Shown here piece by piece: positions 25,410 through 31,199 of a stretch of DNA of 64,000 bases. The translations under genes were made by a program, and so were the position numbers. The first letter of the stretch is position 1; every line of letters begins with the position of its first letter. A model generated the notes under the pieces. The model saw nothing but the letters and a program-made list of their open reading frames with translations, was not told where the DNA came from and made no database searches. The stretch comes from Pseudomonas moorei (lineage in GTDB: Bacteria > Pseudomonadota > Gammaproteobacteria > Pseudomonadales > Pseudomonadaceae). The stretch is taken from assembly GCF_008801475.1 (NCBI RefSeq), contig NZ_VZPP01000004.1, forward strand, positions 186,001 to 250,000. Direction: 5' to 3'.

Positions 25410-26330
25410 TCAGATCCCCTGCGGAGTCTCTTCTCCGCCCAATGCCTCGACCAGCGCCGGCAGGAAGTCGCCAAAGGTGAGCATCATCAGGGTAAAGCTG
25501 GCATCCAGTTGGCCGAGGGCTTCGTCGCCACCGTCCTGTTCCGCCTGGTCTTGCAGCAGATCCTCGAACTTCAGGCGCTTGACCACCATCTTGTCGTCGA
25601 GGACGAAGGACAGTTTGTCCTGCCAGGCCAGCGACAACTGAGTGACTACTTTGCCGGTGCTCAAGTGCAGCTGGATTTCTTCGCTGGTCAGGTCCTGACG
25701 CTTGCAACGCACGATGCCGCCGTCTTCGTGGGTGTCGCGCAGTTCGCACTCGTCCAGCACAAAGAAATCGTCCGCGGCTTTCTGGGTGGTGACCCACTCG
25801 GTCATGGTCGCGGTCGGAGACATTTTTACCGTCAGCGGGCGCACCGGCAGGGTACCGATCACTTCACGCAGGGTGGACAGCAGGTCCTCGGCGCGTTTCG
25901 GGCTGGCCGAGTTCACCAGGATCAGGCCTTGCTTCGGCGCGATGGCGGCGAAGGTCGACGAGCGACGGATGAAGGCGCGCGGCAGGAACGCCTGGATGAT
26001 TTCATCCTTGATCTGATCGCGCTCCTTCTTATAGACCTTGCGCATTTGCTCGGCTTCGATCTCTTCGACCTTTTCCTTGACTGCGTCACGCACGACGCTG
26101 CCAGGCAGAATGCGTTCTTCCTTGCGGGCGCTGATCAGCAGGAAGTCACCACTGACGTGCACCAGCGGTGCATCTTCGCCCTTGCCGAACGGCGCGACGA
26201 AACCGTAGGTGGTCAACTCCTGGCTTGCACATGGACGCGCCAGTTTGGTGGCCAGTGCAGTTTCCAACGCCTCGGCATCAACAGGCAGATCTTGGGTCAG
26301 GCGATAGATAAGCAGGTTCTTGAACCACAT
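25410..26330 (-). CDS. rdgC: Recombination-associated protein RdgC
   Basis: A 306-residue ring-forming DNA-binding protein that modulates RecA activity. It starts [26 protein letters not shown], the family N-terminus, and contains [36 protein letters not shown] and [16 protein letters not shown], all characteristic. The start at 26330 matches the family; an upstream in-frame ATG at 26354 would add MYKGETHP only. Full length compared with the family (about 300-310). Confidence 0.96.
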
Positions 26331-26440
26331 GGGGTGAGTCTCTCCTTTATACAAAGGGGGGCATTATTGACTTCGCGGTGCCATAGGCCAACCCTTCTCT
26401 AAGCCTTTGGAAGGCATGAAAAAATTAATTAAAAAAGTGC

Positions 26441-26490: not shown

Positions 26491-26566
26491 GGGTGATTAG
26501 CTCAGCTGGGAGAGCGTCTGCCTTACAAGCAGAATGTCGGCGGTTCGATCCCGTCATCACCCACCA
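26491..26566 (+). tRNA. tRNA-Val (anticodon TAC), copy 1
   Basis: A 76-base cloverleaf starting GGGTGATTAGCTCAG with acceptor pairs GGGTGAT/ATCACCC, anticodon loop CTTACAA (TAC), T-loop GGTTCGATCC and an encoded CCA end. Confidence 0.98.
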
Positions 26567-26585
26567 TTCGCATTCAGTGTTACGC

Positions 26586-26662
26586 GCAGCGGTAGTTCAG
26601 TCGGTTAGAATACCGGCCTGTCACGCCGGGGGTCGCGGGTTCGAGTCCCGTCCGCTGCGCCA
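26586..26662 (+). tRNA. tRNA-Asp (anticodon GTC), copy 1
   Basis: A 77-base cloverleaf with acceptor GCAGCGG/CCGCTGC, discriminator G, anticodon loop CTGTCAC (GTC), T-loop GGTTCGAGTCC and encoded CCA. The base after position 8 and the D-arm GTTCAGTCGGTTAGAAT are normal. Confidence 0.97.
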
Positions 26663-26702
26663 TATTCGGTAACCTGGAACACTGAACGCCAGGTCGCCAC
26701 GG

Positions 26703-26728
26703 AAAAGCCCGCTGAAGCGGGCTTTTTT
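26703..26728 (+). terminator. Intrinsic terminator after tRNA unit 1
   Basis: AAAAGCCCGC and GCGGGCTTTTTT form a strong stem with a T tract, ending the first Val-Asp transcript. Confidence 0.9.
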
Positions 26729-26810
26729 CTGCCCCAAGTTTGTATGTTGTTCCTGCGGATTGCATCGTTTCACCGGTTTTAGATTTTTTTGAAAAAAAAC
26801 TTCAATTAAA

Positions 26811-26840
26811 TCAACACTTTATAAAAACCTGTGGCATAAT
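26811..26840 (+). promoter_or_regulatory. Promoter of the second tRNA unit
   Basis: TCAACA (26811-26816) and CATAAT (26835-26840) have an 18-base spacer. The -35 is weaker than that of copy 1; an A/T-rich upstream stretch (26780-26810) may act as an UP element. Confidence 0.5.
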
Positions 26841-26861
26841 GTGTCCCGCAACGAAGGTAAA

Positions 26862-26937
26862 GGGTGATTAGCTCAGCTGGGAGAGCGTCTGCCTTACAAG
26901 CAGAATGTCGGCGGTTCGATCCCGTCATCACCCACCA
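26862..26937 (+). tRNA. tRNA-Val (anticodon TAC), copy 2
   Basis: The sequence is identical to the copy at 26491-26566. Confidence 0.98.
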
Positions 26938-26952
26938 CTTTCAACGCTACGC

Positions 26953-27029
26953 GCAGCGGTAGTTCAGTCGGTTAGAATACCGGCCTGTCACGCCGGGGGT
27001 CGCGGGTTCGAGTCCCGTCCGCTGCGCCA
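26953..27029 (+). tRNA. tRNA-Asp (anticodon GTC), copy 2
   Basis: The sequence is identical to the copy at 26586-26662, including the encoded CCA and about 30 following bases. Confidence 0.97.
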
Positions 27030-27249: not shown

Positions 27250-28386
27250 CTACTGTTCGGCGTTGCGGGCGTGTCGGTAATCGCTGACGGCTTCGTAAAC
27301 GGCTTTGCGCAACCGGTTGATGCCGCCGATAGGGCGATGAGCCTCGAGTCCAAACCACGGGTTGAACGACTGGTTATCGCATTGCAGGTTCAGCGCAGGC
27401 GTATCGAAGTCCTGGGCGGGCACCTTGATTCGTGCCACGGTCTGGAAGGGCGCATCGTTCTCGCTCCACTCAATGCTGGTGTCTTCGATCGGCATGTACT
27501 TGTTGGCGTCCTGGCGCTGGATCTGCAAGACGAAACACGCAGGTACCCGATCAGTCGACAGCTGCTGATTCAGCGCATTGCGCAGGAAGTTCGGCAATTT
27601 CCGGTTTTGCGCAGGCAAGCTGTAGGGCGGGCAGCTTTGCGGGTCGGGCATCACACGAAACTTGGCGTTGGCTTCACCGAATTTGTAGGGCGAAACTGAA
27701 AAGTAGGTGGTCTGGGTCGGACTGGGCGGCGCGGGCGACAAGGTCGCCAATGCAATGAACAGGTGACGAACCTGCCAGGTGCGCGGATCCCAGCCCGGAA
27801 AAAAGGCCATGATTTTTTTGCCATCTGCCTGCGCGGCAACGTTCTGACGATACTCGGCGACATTACTGACGAAAAAGTTCGGGTGGCTGAACATCACGAA
27901 GTCTTGTTCGCTTCGCTGCGTCTGATCGCTCAGCAGTTGTTTGCCCGGTACGTCGAGTAGCTTGATCGCCATGCCCCGGGCATCGTGGATGCTGTCGAAC
28001 TGTGGATAGGCATTGCCGTTGGACAGGCGCATCGTCGCTTGCCAGGTTTTGCCAGGCTCGTTGAACACGCCCTGACGCAAGTCGTTCGCCAGGTCTGGCA
28101 GCACCTGGACTTCAGCCTGTACGCAACCGTGGGCCTTGGCATGGGCGTCGCGCAGATAGCGGGTGCTTTCACGGTGTTGGTCGACGATGCGCACGGCCGT
28201 CTGAATGATGTCCTGAGTCATCGCTGCTTCAACGTCCGGAATCTGCTCTTGCGCCGATACCGGACCGCCGTGTTGCCAGGCGAACCACGCCGAGGCCAAG
28301 GCCCAGGCAAGCAACCCAAGACCCAATAGCCAGAGCAGAGTCTTGCCGAGAAAAGCGGCCAGGCGCAGCCAGAGGGTCATGAGCAT
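27250..28386 (-). CDS. Membrane-anchored catalase-like heme protein
   Basis: A 378-residue member of the catalase superfamily of the small, catalase-related peroxidase type. An N-terminal helix (LLWLLGLGLLAWALASAWFAW, about residues 16-36) should anchor it facing the periplasm. Superfamily traits are GNAYPQFDSIHDARGMAIKLLDVPG and FVMFSHPNFFVSNVAEYRQNV, with a distal asparagine region in HPNFF. It is shorter than true catalases (about 480). It is followed, 28 bases upstream in coordinate terms, by the cytochrome gene that is transcribed first. AGGAA precedes ATG 28386; the stop lies in a partial REP. Confidence 0.82.
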   Translation of the reverse strand: MLMTLWLRLAAFLGKTLLWLLGLGLLAWALASAWFAWQHGGPVSAQEQIPDVEAAMTQDIIQTAVRIVDQHRESTRYLRDAHAKAHGCVQAEVQVLPDLANDLRQGVFNEPGKTWQATMRLSNGNAYPQFDSIHDARGMAIKLLDVPGKQLLSDQTQRSEQDFVMFSHPNFFVSNVAEYRQNVAAQADGKKIMAFFPGWDPRTWQVRHLFIALATLSPAPPSPTQTTYFSVSPYKFGEANAKFRVMPDPQSCPPYSLPAQNRKLPNFLRNALNQQLSTDRVPACFVLQIQRQDANKYMPIEDTSIEWSENDAPFQTVARIKVPAQDFDTPALNLQCDNQSFNPWFGLEAHRPIGGINRLRKAVYEAVSDYRHARNAEQ

Positions 28387-28414
28387 GGGGAATTCCTTTT
28401 GTAATGGGCGAGGG

Positions 28415-30226
28415 TCATGGCAATTGCGACTCCAGCGGGCCGCCCAACACCTTCAGATACTCCAGCAGCGCCCAGCGCTCCTGTGGTTGCAGCAGACGTC
28501 CGATCACGCCGTTGCCCAGTTTGCCGGCACGGAACTCGTGACCGCTGTTGTGGTTGCCGGTGATGCGCGTGTCGAACAGAAAGGCATTGGTAAAGGCTTC
28601 GGTGCGATAGCCCAGGTGCTTCGGGTCGTACTCGAACGTGCCTTTGTAGAAGGTGGTTGAGCGTTCATCCTGAGGCGAGAGCAATTGATAAAGGCTTGGC
28701 ACCGAGCCGTTGTGCAGGAACGGCGGTGTCGCCCACACGCCCGCCAACGGACGGGCCTTGTAGGCGCGTAACTCGCGGACACCGATCGGCAAGCCGAACC
28801 CGTCCATTTCAGGCCGTTCGGCGAGTGTGATGCCCGCCTCGCGATAGGCCCGGTTTGCCACAAACGCCGTGACATAGGCCAGCCCTTTGGCCACGGACAT
28901 CTGGCTCAGATCAAGGGGGTGCGTGGGTTTGGGTTCGACATCCAGTTGACCGAGCTCCGCCGGATTCCATTGCAGTGCCGTCAAGTCGTAGCGGTGATCG
29001 GCGATGTTGTTGGCCGCGCCGGGGTCGGTGCCGATGTATACCACGGGGAGCATTTTCAGGTGTTGCACGTTTCGTCCTTCGCCTTGGGTCGTCCGCGGTA
29101 CGTGACAGCCTGCGCAATTTTCGCTGAACAGTGCGCGACCCTTTGCTGCCAAGGGTTTGTCGATGGGCCCCAGCAGTTCTTCGGGCCAGGCAGGCGGAGC
29201 GAGCCGTTGCAGGGTTGCTTCGATCAGATGGAGATCGCGCACCCGGACGCTGGAGGGGTAACGATCGTCGCCCTTGAAGGGCTGACCATCGCGGTCGAAG
29301 AAATTCAGTGTGGCGCCGACACCCAGGGCTTCACCGATATTGCGCGCCATCGGCTGCTGCGCCGAGCCGTTCCACTGCACCCAGTCGAAGGTCCACATGT
29401 CCCACAACTGCGGGTAGTCCACCGGGGCATTGGCCACGCGATAATTGTCGGGAGAAATGGCATCGCCGAAGCTGGCGTTGGCGATACGACCGAAGGCATC
29501 GGTACGCCCGGGCCCTTCCTCAGTCGGGTAGAGCCCGCGATGGGTATCGTTCCAGGCCACTTTCAGAAAGGTATCGAGCGAAGCCTTGAATTCGTTGCGC
29601 AGTTGCTGGCGCCGGGAGTCGTAATCCCCGGCCAGTACCTGGCGTGCGAAACGTTCGAATTTCCAGGGGTTGTAATAAGTCGCGGCCAGGCTCGCTACCA
29701 AGGCTTGTCCGAAACTGCCACCTCGCAGTGTAGGAACGCTGGAGGGCAACACATGCTGTGCCGAACCGCCATCGATGCGCACGGCTTGACCGTTGAAACG
29801 CAGTTCTCCGGTATGGCAGGCGGCACAGGTAATATCCAGAAACGTATCCGCACTCCCGGGATTTTGGTGCCGGGCAAAGCCCACCGGAAGATTTCCAGGG
29901 TTGTTCGGGGTGGGTTTCTGGCTGGGGTCGATCAGAAAGCCGAAGCGTGCGAGGTACTCAGGGGAGGCGAATCGTTGTTGCGAAAAGGGCAATTCAAGGG
30001 CCGTGAACCAGTCGTAGTGCAGGCCCTTGACCTGCGTACCTTGAGGCGTGAAGTAGTATGTCTGGCGGTCGGCATCGTCCCATTGGTCGAGATAATGCAC
30101 CTGTTGTGCGGGTGACCAGAGCGGTAGCTTAGGGTTGGCAACGTAGTACAGAACCACGGCCAGAGCCACTCCCAGCAGGATTGCGATCGCCATGAGCGAG
30201 CGGAATAAGAGGCGCAAGATGAACAT
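28415..30226 (-). CDS. Di-heme cytochrome c peroxidase-like protein (RoxA-like)
   Basis: A 603-residue protein with an N-terminal membrane anchor or uncleaved signal (LLFRSLMAIAILLGVALAVVLYYVA) and two c-type heme motifs, CAACH (about 134-138) and CAGCH (about 371-375), more than 230 residues apart. Length and heme spacing resemble di-heme peroxidase-like proteins related to RoxA rubber oxygenase rather than the 330-residue bacterial CcpA/MauG. It is probably periplasmic, cotranscribed with the catalase-like gene 28 bases downstream. The substrate is unknown; oxidation using peroxide or oxygen is inferred. Confidence 0.8.
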   Translation of the reverse strand: MFILRLLFRSLMAIAILLGVALAVVLYYVANPKLPLWSPAQQVHYLDQWDDADRQTYYFTPQGTQVKGLHYDWFTALELPFSQQRFASPEYLARFGFLIDPSQKPTPNNPGNLPVGFARHQNPGSADTFLDITCAACHTGELRFNGQAVRIDGGSAQHVLPSSVPTLRGGSFGQALVASLAATYYNPWKFERFARQVLAGDYDSRRQQLRNEFKASLDTFLKVAWNDTHRGLYPTEEGPGRTDAFGRIANASFGDAISPDNYRVANAPVDYPQLWDMWTFDWVQWNGSAQQPMARNIGEALGVGATLNFFDRDGQPFKGDDRYPSSVRVRDLHLIEATLQRLAPPAWPEELLGPIDKPLAAKGRALFSENCAGCHVPRTTQGEGRNVQHLKMLPVVYIGTDPGAANNIADHRYDLTALQWNPAELGQLDVEPKPTHPLDLSQMSVAKGLAYVTAFVANRAYREAGITLAERPEMDGFGLPIGVRELRAYKARPLAGVWATPPFLHNGSVPSLYQLLSPQDERSTTFYKGTFEYDPKHLGYRTEAFTNAFLFDTRITGNHNSGHEFRAGKLGNGVIGRLLQPQERWALLEYLKVLGGPLESQLP

Positions 30227-30485
30227 CCCTGTCGATTAATATTTTGTTATGCCTTAGCCTCAGATCAGCGGCAAGTGGCCATTACGCCAGACATTGTGGG
30301 ATACGGGATCTGTCTCGATATGAGTCGGATGACAGATGTTTCATCATCTACACTGCGAAAAGCGTTTAAACAGCTGAACTTATCCGAAATTTCCGGCTCT
30401 CATGCCGGTAGCCATTGGTCGTGGCCGCCTGATAAGCTCGCGGCTTTACTCGATTGCCCTTTAGGCGCATGAACAAGGAAATAGC
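30227..30485. other. Divergent intergenic region without recognised element
   Basis: This separates the minus-strand cytochrome gene from the FKBP lipoprotein gene. A 65-codon open frame at 30275-30472 has no ribosome site. AAGGAAAT stands before the FKBP ATG. Confidence 0.4.
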
Positions 30486-31199
30486 ATGAAACAGCATCGG
30501 TTGGCGGCGGCGGTGGCCCTGGTTAGCCTGGTACTTGCGGGTTGCGACTCGCAGACCAGCGTAGAGCTGAAAACCCCGGCGCAAAAAGCTTCCTACGGAA
30601 TTGGCCTGAACATGGGCAAAAGTCTGGCTCAGGAAGGCATGGATGACCTGGACTCCAAAGCCGTAGCCCAGGGCATCGAAGATGCCGTCGGCAAGAAAGA
30701 ACAGAAACTGAAAGATGAAGAGCTGGTTGAAGCCTTCGCCGCGCTGCAAAAGCGTGCCGAAGAGCGTATGGCCAAGATGAGCGAAGAGTCGGCAGCCGCT
30801 GGCAAGAAATTCCTCGAAGAAAACGCCAAGAAAGCTGGCGTAGTGACCACCGCTTCGGGCTTGCAGTACGAAGTGATCAAGAAAGCCGATGGCGCTCAGC
30901 CAAAGCCGACTGATGTAGTGACCGTCCACTACACCGGCAAGCTGACCAATGGCACCGTTTTCGACAGCTCCGTCGAGCGTGGCAGCCCGATCGATCTGCC
31001 GGTTAGCGGTGTGATTCCGGGTTGGGTCGAAGGCCTGCAACTGATGCACGTAGGCGAGAAGTACAAGTTGTACATTCCTAGCGAACTGGCTTACGGCGCG
31101 CAAAGCCCAAGCCCGGCGATCCCGGCCAACTCGGTGCTGGTGTTCGACCTGGAGCTGCTGGCGATCAAGGATCCGGCAAAAGAAGACGCTGCCAAGTAA
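30486..31199 (+). CDS. FKBP-type peptidyl-prolyl isomerase lipoprotein (Mip/FkpA-like)
   Basis: A 237-residue periplasmic prolyl isomerase. The signal MKQHRLAAAVALVSLVLAGC has a lipobox LAGC (lipidated C20). Residues 30-110 form the helical dimerisation domain (KASYGIGLNMGKSLAQEGMDDLDSKAVAQGIEDA), and residues 120-230 the FKBP domain with VTVHYTGKLTNGTVFDSSVERG and LPVSGVIPGWVEGLQLMHVGEKYKLYIPSELAYG. It should assist folding of envelope proteins. A hairpin terminator follows. Confidence 0.93.
   Translation: MKQHRLAAAVALVSLVLAGCDSQTSVELKTPAQKASYGIGLNMGKSLAQEGMDDLDSKAVAQGIEDAVGKKEQKLKDEELVEAFAALQKRAEERMAKMSEESAAAGKKFLEENAKKAGVVTTASGLQYEVIKKADGAQPKPTDVVTVHYTGKLTNGTVFDSSVERGSPIDLPVSGVIPGWVEGLQLMHVGEKYKLYIPSELAYGAQSPSPAIPANSVLVFDLELLAIKDPAKEDAAK

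What the first reader, a model, noticed from the sequence alone, without database searches (positions are those of the whole stretch)
27250..30226. Catalase-like protein paired with a RoxA-like di-heme cytochrome c, both membrane-anchored
Two heme proteins, 28 bases apart on one strand, each have an N-terminal helix that should put them in the periplasm. The cytochrome has two CxxCH motifs more than 230 residues apart and 603 residues, unlike ordinary peroxidases, and the catalase-like partner is much shorter than a true catalase. The pair could consume an organic peroxide or perform an oxidation with shared electrons. I know no described pathway for it.
Basis: partly seen in the sequence, partly recalled or inferred. 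Interest (0 to 1): 0.62.

Follow-up and report, generated by a model that had tools for sequence, protein, structure and literature searches.

The report
Lipid-dioxygenase-like cytochrome with catalase-like partner
Many Pseudomonas carry, side by side, an envelope cytochrome related to the enzymes that oxidise fatty acids in P. aeruginosa and a shortened catalase-like protein that may handle the peroxide it makes; in some other bacteria a cytochrome P450 sits in that place, which hints at little-explored bacterial lipid-oxidation pathways.

Summary
In detail: a 603-aa di-heme cytochrome (CYT, 28415-30226, -) is followed after 28 bases by a 378-aa catalase-like protein (CAT, 27250-28386, -), each with an N-terminal hydrophobic helix. 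CYT belongs to NCBIfam NF040606, as do orthologues of P. aeruginosa PA2077/PA2078 (oleate 10S-dioxygenase, diol synthase). In 119 Pseudomonas genomes a CAT orthologue occurs in 79, with CYT adjacent in all 79; 39 lack both. Of 47 CYT loci read outside the genus, 11 have CAT next door, 10 a cytochrome P450 (2 more loosely placed), 24 neither, none both. On the CYT tree well-supported branches force at least four changes of the CAT label and six of the P450 label. CAT keeps the distal His and proximal Arg/Tyr but lacks the catalytic catalase Asn in 24 of 24 paired copies examined. Best reading (inferred, 0.45): an oxylipin-type pathway in which CYT makes an organic, probably lipid, hydroperoxide and CAT converts it; P450s may take that step elsewhere. 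Against it: half of the outside CYTs have neither neighbour, the P450s look cytosolic and canonical, and substrate and chemistry are untested. New variant of a known kind; I found the partner swap described nowhere in the searches made.

The parts
28415..30226 (-). di-heme c-type cytochrome (CYT), 603 aa, NF040606 / RoxA-like; N-terminal membrane anchor or signal
29813..29827 (-). first heme site CAACH, residues 134-138 (aligned with H130 of the 10S-DOX orthologue)
29102..29116 (-). second heme site CAGCH, residues 371-375 (aligned with H375 of the 10S-DOX orthologue)
28697..28723 (-). MauG-type motif PFLHNGSVP, H505 (aligned with H553 of the 10S-DOX orthologue)
   Evidence: motif named in PMC4496055 passages
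28538..28558 (-). GNHNSGH, H563, aligned with RoxA H641 and with H612 of the 10S-DOX orthologue
27250..28386 (-). catalase-like protein (CAT), 378 aa, N-terminal membrane anchor or signal
28141..28152 (-). distal heme residues R79-D-A-H82
27889..27891 (-). F166, where the host's true catalases carry the catalytic distal Asn
27295..27309 (-). proximal heme residues R360-xxx-Y364
28387..28414 (-). 28-base gap between the genes (-7 to 29 bases in the 80 named Pseudomonas loci, counted to a window-like start)
30227..30485 (.). intergenic region towards the divergent gene 30486-31199 (FKBP-type isomerase, recalled from its sequence); conserved blocks in 81 aligned upstream regions

Best explanation
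The two genes encode consecutive envelope steps of an oxylipin-type pathway. CYT, a distant relative of PA2077 (oleate 10S-dioxygenase), PA2078 (diol synthase) and RoxA, binds O2 at its N-terminal heme and oxygenates an unsaturated hydrophobic substrate (most likely a fatty acid or an envelope lipid) to a hydroperoxide. CAT, a catalase-fold protein that keeps the heme site and the distal His but has lost the catalytic catalase Asn, converts that hydroperoxide (isomerase, dehydratase or lyase, or reduction to the alcohol) and so also protects the cell. In other lineages a P450 of one subfamily stands in CAT's place. Shown: the pair, its conservation, the family relationships, the residues, the exchange of neighbours. 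Inferred: substrate, O2 chemistry, order of steps, catalase fold of CAT (from sequence profiles only), and that CAT acts on CYT's product.
For: PA2077/PA2078 orthologues (identified by size, heme positions and published primers) belong to the same NCBIfam family as CYT; CYT is 33% identical to the dioxygenase and 31% to the diol synthase. H138, H375, H505, H563 align with its heme, MauG-motif and ligand positions. L231, a CYT with a CAT neighbour, groups with the dioxygenase/diol synthase rows at 100/96. Pair co-conserved in 79 of 119 genomes. Neighbours of 47 loci outside the genus: CAT 11, P450 10 plus 2 looser, never both; both kinds occur inside and outside a 32-row branch of support 100/100. 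Patatin, SGL, CYT, CAT in a row in L247. CAT: 24 of 24 paired copies keep R79, H82, R120, R360, Y364. Precedent: overexpressed PA2077 was lethal in a PA2078 mutant, whereas the whole operon was not toxic (PMC4496055 section 21). Catalase-fold enzymes acting on fatty-acid hydroperoxides are known in corals (PMC5617202 passages).
Against: 24 of 47 loci have neither neighbour; of 21 such genomes searched, 1 has the P450 and 5 a CAT elsewhere, so CYT often lacks both. None of 12 P450s shows a signal peptide and all keep the I-helix Glu-Thr of oxygen-activating P450s, so they are not shown to be hydroperoxide enzymes and would sit in another compartment. CAT has neither the Asn nor the Thr of the coral enzyme. 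Overexpressed PA2077 was toxic even with PA2078 present in the genome. A PA2077-PA2078 deletion left PAO1 deficient in 10-HOME (PMC5155153 passages): if PAO1 has the pair (not checked; its relative G806 has it), the pair does not make up for that product. CYT lies on another branch than the dioxygenase, and its loop has GS where DOX/DS have GF. No usable structure model.
Confidence: 0.45

Rival explanations
1. Envelope peroxide defence: CYT is a cytochrome c peroxidase or MauG-like oxidase that uses H2O2 or alkyl hydroperoxides with electrons from the respiratory chain, and CAT is a low-rate peroxidase/catalase that removes the same peroxides. No dedicated lipid product is made.
For: NCBIfam names the family di-heme-cytochrome C peroxidase; MauG-type motif present; relatives of CAT are fused to LodA/GoxA-type oxidases, whose product is H2O2 by recall (L305, L306, L349), or lie beside a DyP-like protein.
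Against: CAT lacks the catalytic catalase Asn in 24 of 24 paired copies, and the host genome has two full catalases at 644 and 603 bits. The relatives with published biochemistry, PA2077 and RoxA, are oxygenases (PMC4496055, PMC10837239 passages). A P450 as alternative neighbour is odd for a detoxification pair.
Confidence: 0.27
2. CAT is purely protective: CYT makes hydroperoxides as in the best reading, and CAT only reduces or breaks them down, with no defined product.
For: PA2077 was toxic when overexpressed and the complete operon was not; fused relatives of CAT sit with presumed peroxide-makers.
Against: Where P450s stand in CAT's place they keep oxygen-activating motifs, more in line with product formation; many CYTs have no such partner.
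Confidence: 0.15
3. Neighbours by history only: the pair is an old, vertically inherited cluster and the proteins act in separate processes.
For: In Pseudomonas the locus is syntenic, so 79 of 79 adjacency is not independent evidence.
Against: Well-supported branches force at least four changes of the CAT label and six of the P450 label, though some may be losses; CAT comes first in L243 and L256 and second elsewhere.
Confidence: 0.08

Closest known systems
PA2077/PA2078 oleate diol synthase of P. aeruginosa (FadCcp; PMC4496055)
   Same: Orthologues score over the cut-off of the same family NF040606; two CxxCH, MauG-type motif and C-terminal ligand His at aligned places; activity in the periplasm (PMC5155153 passage); a hydroperoxide-forming enzyme with a second heme enzyme next door
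   Different: The second enzyme there is another di-heme cytochrome, here a catalase-like protein; 31-33% identity; separate branch; GS in the loop where DOX/DS have GF
RoxA/RoxB/RoxC rubber oxygenases (PDB 4b2n; PMC10837239 passages)
   Same: Profile match to RoxA 4.6e-27 in four pieces that include the two CxxCH, the MauG-type motif and the last His
   Different: RoxA/B/C NCBIfam scores 48-57 bits against cut-offs of 900-1000
Catalase-related allene oxide synthase / hydroperoxide lyase of corals (PDB 1u5u; PMC5617202 passages)
   Same: Profile match 8.7e-10; distal Arg and His and proximal Tyr kept; coupled to an oxygenase
   Different: T66 and N137 positions are A81 and F166; the neighbour is a di-heme cytochrome, not a lipoxygenase, and not fused
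MAP-2744c short catalase-like protein (PDB 3e4w; name recalled)
   Same: Best PDB match of the CAT profile (1e-14), 320 aa
   Different: Aligned only from profile position 113, so the distal His is not covered; partner not examined
Fungal dioxygenase-P450 fusions (PMC13049297; start of abstract seen in a listing only)
   Same: A heme dioxygenase coupled to a P450, the logic proposed for the CYT-P450 loci
   Different: Fused in one polypeptide; protein families said there to be others

Membership tests
NF040606 di-heme-cytochrome C peroxidase (NCBIfam subfamily) | score over curated cut-off 150 bits over the full model | tested here: met
   592.6 bits, model 1-523 of 524
FadCcp (PA2077/PA2078) | two CxxCH, MauG-type His motif, C-terminal ligand His | tested here: met
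   H138, H375, H505, H563 align with H130, H375, H553, H612 of the DOX orthologue (the paper numbers the last one 611)
FadCcp (PA2077/PA2078) | falls in the PA2077/PA2078 branch | tested here: not met
   window CYT lies in a CAT-paired branch; DOX/DS lie with L174-L176 and L231
FadCcp (PA2077/PA2078) | oxygenates long-chain fatty acids with O2 | not testable with these tools
   needs an enzyme assay
FadCcp (PA2077/PA2078) and RoxA | equivalents of RoxA F317 and W302 | tested here: inconclusive
   the published positions 251/269 do not fall on W/F in the orthologue used here; the nearest loop is GF in DOX/DS and GS (S288) in the window
RoxA/RoxB/RoxC rubber oxygenases | NCBIfam cut-offs | tested here: not met
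   47.9, 53.9, 56.7 bits against 1000, 900, 900
True catalase | Pfam PF00199 gathering score | tested here: not met
   23.9 against 25 bits for the window copy; three relatives tested pass with 36-47 bits
True catalase | distal His, distal Asn, proximal Arg/Tyr | tested here: not met
   His and Arg/Tyr present, Asn absent (F166) when aligned with the host's own two catalases
Catalase-related allene oxide synthase | R64, T66, H67, N137, Y353 | tested here: not met
   R79, H82, Y364 present; T66 and N137 positions are A81 and F166
Catalase-related allene oxide synthase | lipoxygenase partner | tested here: inconclusive
   no PF00305 match in the host genome, but nothing rang in the controls

The most novel reading that the evidence does not exclude
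Proteobacteria hold a modular set of oxylipin-type cascades in which a heme oxygenase (the NF040606 cytochrome, perhaps also a DyP-like protein) is coupled to a second heme enzyme taken from one of two unrelated folds, a catalase-like protein or a P450, that fills the same step. This would repeat in bacteria the convergence known in eukaryotes, where allene oxide synthases are catalase-fold in corals and P450 in plants and fungi (PMC5617202 passage). The same two alternatives turn up in a second, DyP-like neighbourhood: CAT relatives in L350, L346, L011, L348, a P450 in L352, and a broken copy of the cytochrome itself in L233.
Probability: 0.3. Interest if true: 0.8.

Novelty: new variant of a known kind. 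Interest (0 to 1): 0.6.

Why it matters
Bacterial oxylipins made by PA2077/PA2078 affect motility, biofilm and virulence in P. aeruginosa (PMC5155153 passages and abstract start; PMC6377657 abstract start), and 10S-DOX activity is also ascribed to Pseudoalteromonas and Shewanella (PMC8704379 passage). A relative of those enzymes with a catalase-like partner in 79 of 119 sampled Pseudomonas, among them plant-associated species such as P. syringae and P. viridiflava (names), would make lipid-hydroperoxide metabolism a common trait of the genus, and the CAT/P450 exchange names concrete gene pairs on which the chemistry can be tested.

Tried and rejected
Structure models: AlphaFold2 on alignments of the window with named Pseudomonas loci gave mean pLDDT 54 (CAT) and 35 (CYT); not used, and no fold search was run. 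A PsrA-type box (consensus recalled) was sought in 81 upstream regions and none matched; the conserved blocks remain unassigned. Reading CAT as an ordinary catalase: set aside because of the missing Asn and the two full catalases in the genome. Reading the P450s as peroxide-only enzymes from a missing I-helix acid/Thr: not supported, the motif is canonical. The G745 tandem (L290) taken for PA2077/PA2078: rejected, its heme sites are 214 and 217 residues apart; the orthologues are in G806. A PDB relative of CAT by single sequence: none, found only with a profile. The third PF00199 match of the host (L355, 103 bits) could not be aligned, my script found no frame for it.

Rows dropped before counts: distant paralogues L177-L180 and L290 are not among the 47 loci; L174-L176 belong to the genus. 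Broken L173, L233 and L309 were left out of the trees and, further distant and near-identical rows. Not among the 47 either, because chosen later: eight main-family loci from the family sample (L291-L298; CAT next door in 6, neither in L291 and L293) and L330-L332 (CAT in 3 of 3). Two of the 24 loci with neither neighbour (L236, L245) are in genomes that have another CYT with a CAT or P450 neighbour. The genes at 30486-31199 and 25410-26354 are named FKBP-type isomerase and RdgC from memory; catalase residue numbers H75, V74 and Y358 are recalled, Asn148 appears in a reference title seen.
Full report
OBSERVATION. CYT has CAACH 134-138 and CAGCH 371-375; both proteins have a hydrophobic N-terminal helix. 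CYT matches NF040606 at 592.6 bits and PF21419 (RoxA-like) at 59.5; CAT matches PF00199 only weakly, 23.9 against a cut-off of 25. The only strong PDB relative of CYT is RoxA 4b2n (2.2e-8; profile 4.6e-27). CAT finds its superfamily only as a profile: 3e4w (1e-14), catalases, coral allene oxide synthase 1u5u (8.7e-10).

CONSERVATION IN PSEUDOMONAS. The 80 loci kept by the named-genome scan (best 80 of 148 confirmed) are all Pseudomonas and have CYT directly before CAT. In a sample of 119 genomes of the genus, 79 have a CAT orthologue (60% identity or more), all 79 with CYT adjacent on the same strand; 39 have neither orthologue; one (G202) has only a different CYT paralogue, 31% identical. Seven of the 40 genomes without the CAT orthologue have only a distant CAT relative, 30-33% identical. 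The matched stretches lie 33-170 bases apart except in G248 (1,640), where CYT is interrupted. Because the locus is syntenic this shows joint retention and loss, not independent association.

OUTSIDE THE GENUS. From class, phylum and order samples (185, 398 and 56 genomes) I read the surroundings of 47 main-family CYT loci outside the genus. Eleven have CAT next door on the same strand (L009, L223, L224, L225, L231, L232, L234, L241, L243, L247, L256); CAT comes first in L243 and in L256, where a second cytochrome lies between. Ten have a cytochrome P450 next door (L171, L172, L173, L221, L235, L250, L251, L252, L257, L259), with a convergent (L168) and a 1.4-kb-distant (L226) case besides; all 12 pass the Pfam P450 cut-off. 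Twenty-four have neither, none has both. L247 reads patatin, SGL, CYT, CAT; L009 reads SGL, CYT, CAT.

TREES. On a 58-row CYT tree the CAT label needs 5 changes (4 forced by well-supported branches; shuffled mean 17.4) and the P450 label 9 (6 forced; shuffled mean 8.5, so P450 is not clustered); a 70-row tree gives 6 and 9, again with 4 and 6 forced. L168 and L226 count as 'none' there. Inside a 32-row branch with support 100/100 there are 18 CAT and 4 P450 rows, outside it 3 and 5. Some changes may be losses rather than gains. On a CAT tree paired and unpaired copies need 2 changes.

RELATION TO KNOWN ENZYMES. PMC4496055 (abstract, passages, section 21) describes PA2077 and PA2078, RoxA-like di-heme proteins of the oleate diol synthase pathway; overexpressed PA2077 was lethal in a PA2078 mutant and toxic also in a PA2077 mutant, while the whole operon was not toxic. 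I found their locus in G806: tandem ORFs of 624 and 634 aa with heme sites at 130/365 and 130/375 as in the paper's Table 1, between the two published primer sites, one exact and one with two mismatches. Some letters inside the motifs differ from the table. They score 488.2 and 528.7 bits with NF040606. The window CYT is 33% identical to the dioxygenase and 31% to the diol synthase (533 positions aligned to the dioxygenase). G806 also holds the CYT-CAT pair (L330). L231, a CYT with CAT neighbour, groups with the dioxygenase/diol synthase rows at 100/96.

ACTIVE SITES. Across the 24 paired CATs aligned, the distal Arg and His, the RxS motif and the proximal Arg-xxx-Tyr are kept in 24; the position of the catalytic catalase Asn is Phe, Ile, Thr or Gly and never Asn (aligned with the host's two catalases). 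The next residue is Asn in 20 of 24, so a shifted role cannot be excluded. [quoted passage not shown] In unpaired relatives the distal His is Phe (L305, L306) or Asn (L346, L011) in four of ten. In CYT, H138, H375, H505 and H563 align with the functional histidines of the dioxygenase. The P450s keep the Glu-Thr of the I-helix and the Cys loop. A hydrophobic N-terminal stretch passes my threshold in 0 of 12 P450s, 21 of 24 paired CATs, 0 of 4 unpaired CATs in that set and 59 of 73 CYT rows; several rows below it have lipoboxes or doubtful starts.

TESTS THAT WENT THE OTHER WAY. Of 21 genomes whose CYT has neither neighbour, the P450 occurs elsewhere in 1 and CAT in 5; of 20 genomes without CYT, in 1 and 1. 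So CYT often stands without these partners. A PA2077-PA2078 deletion left PAO1 deficient in 10-HOME (PMC5155153 passages), so a CYT-CAT pair, if PAO1 has one, does not make up for it.

A SECOND NEIGHBOURHOOD. Relatives of CAT lie beside a DyP-like protein and one or two proteins without Pfam match in L350, L346, L011 and L348; in L352 a distant relative of the P450s (264 bits) lies there instead, and in L233 the CYT itself, broken by a stop. Of the three DyP-like proteins tested, only that of L350 passes the family cut-offs. Other relatives of CAT are fused to LodA/GoxA-type oxidases (L305, L306, L349). This links the families again and is why the novel case is kept bold.

LITERATURE. Searches for the pair, its annotation names or its relatives listed no title or abstract start that describes a CYT-CAT or CYT-P450 pair; most listed papers were not opened and the library is open-access only, so this is limited. 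RoxC proteins, relatives of RoxA, have been suggested to oxidise unsaturated fatty acids of the cell wall (PMC10837239 passages), which agrees with the reading here.

VERDICT. The pair is real and conserved; 'no described pathway' should become 'a variant of the PA2077/PA2078 type with a catalase-like partner'. Lipid dioxygenase plus hydroperoxide-converting partner, 0.45; peroxide defence, 0.27; protective scavenging only, 0.15; coincidence, 0.08.

Noticed in passing
L350, L346, L011, L348, L352, L233: A DyP-like protein with one or two proteins of no Pfam family stands beside a CAT relative (four loci), a P450 (L352) or the di-heme cytochrome (L233, broken by a stop).
   Followed up: partly
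L305:5985-8084, L306:4296-7313, L349:4352-7309: A catalase-like N-terminal part is joined in one ORF to a LodA/GoxA-type oxidase, in two Pseudomonas and one genome of the same order; the distal His is Phe in L305 and L306.
   Followed up: partly
L256:7931-9775, L250:2514-4352, L231:3734-5551, L179:5995-7821: A second, distant di-heme cytochrome paralogue stands with CYT and CAT in L256, with CYT and P450 in L250, and on the opposite strand beside CYT and CAT in L231.
   Followed up: partly
window 26491-27029: Four tRNA genes Val-Asp-Val-Asp (a tandem duplication by appearance) end 220 bases before the 3' end of CAT.
   Followed up: no
L309; L351:6065-9580: CYT in G248 is interrupted by roughly 1 kb; the P450 of G715 is split by an insert with two ORFs that look like an IS21-type transposase pair (recalled).
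   Followed up: no
window 30227-30485: Strongly conserved blocks upstream of CYT in 81 aligned Pseudomonas regions; the one regulator box tried did not match.
   Followed up: partly
L180:5995-11479: Another RoxA-like cytochrome with an extra N-terminal part lies next to a GMC oxidoreductase/hydrolase protein; similar distant matches occur in about 25 of 119 Pseudomonas genomes, not examined further.
   Followed up: no
window 28919-30115 (+): A 398-aa open frame runs antisense to CYT; long ones occur in high-GC relatives too. Probably a codon-usage artefact.
   Followed up: no
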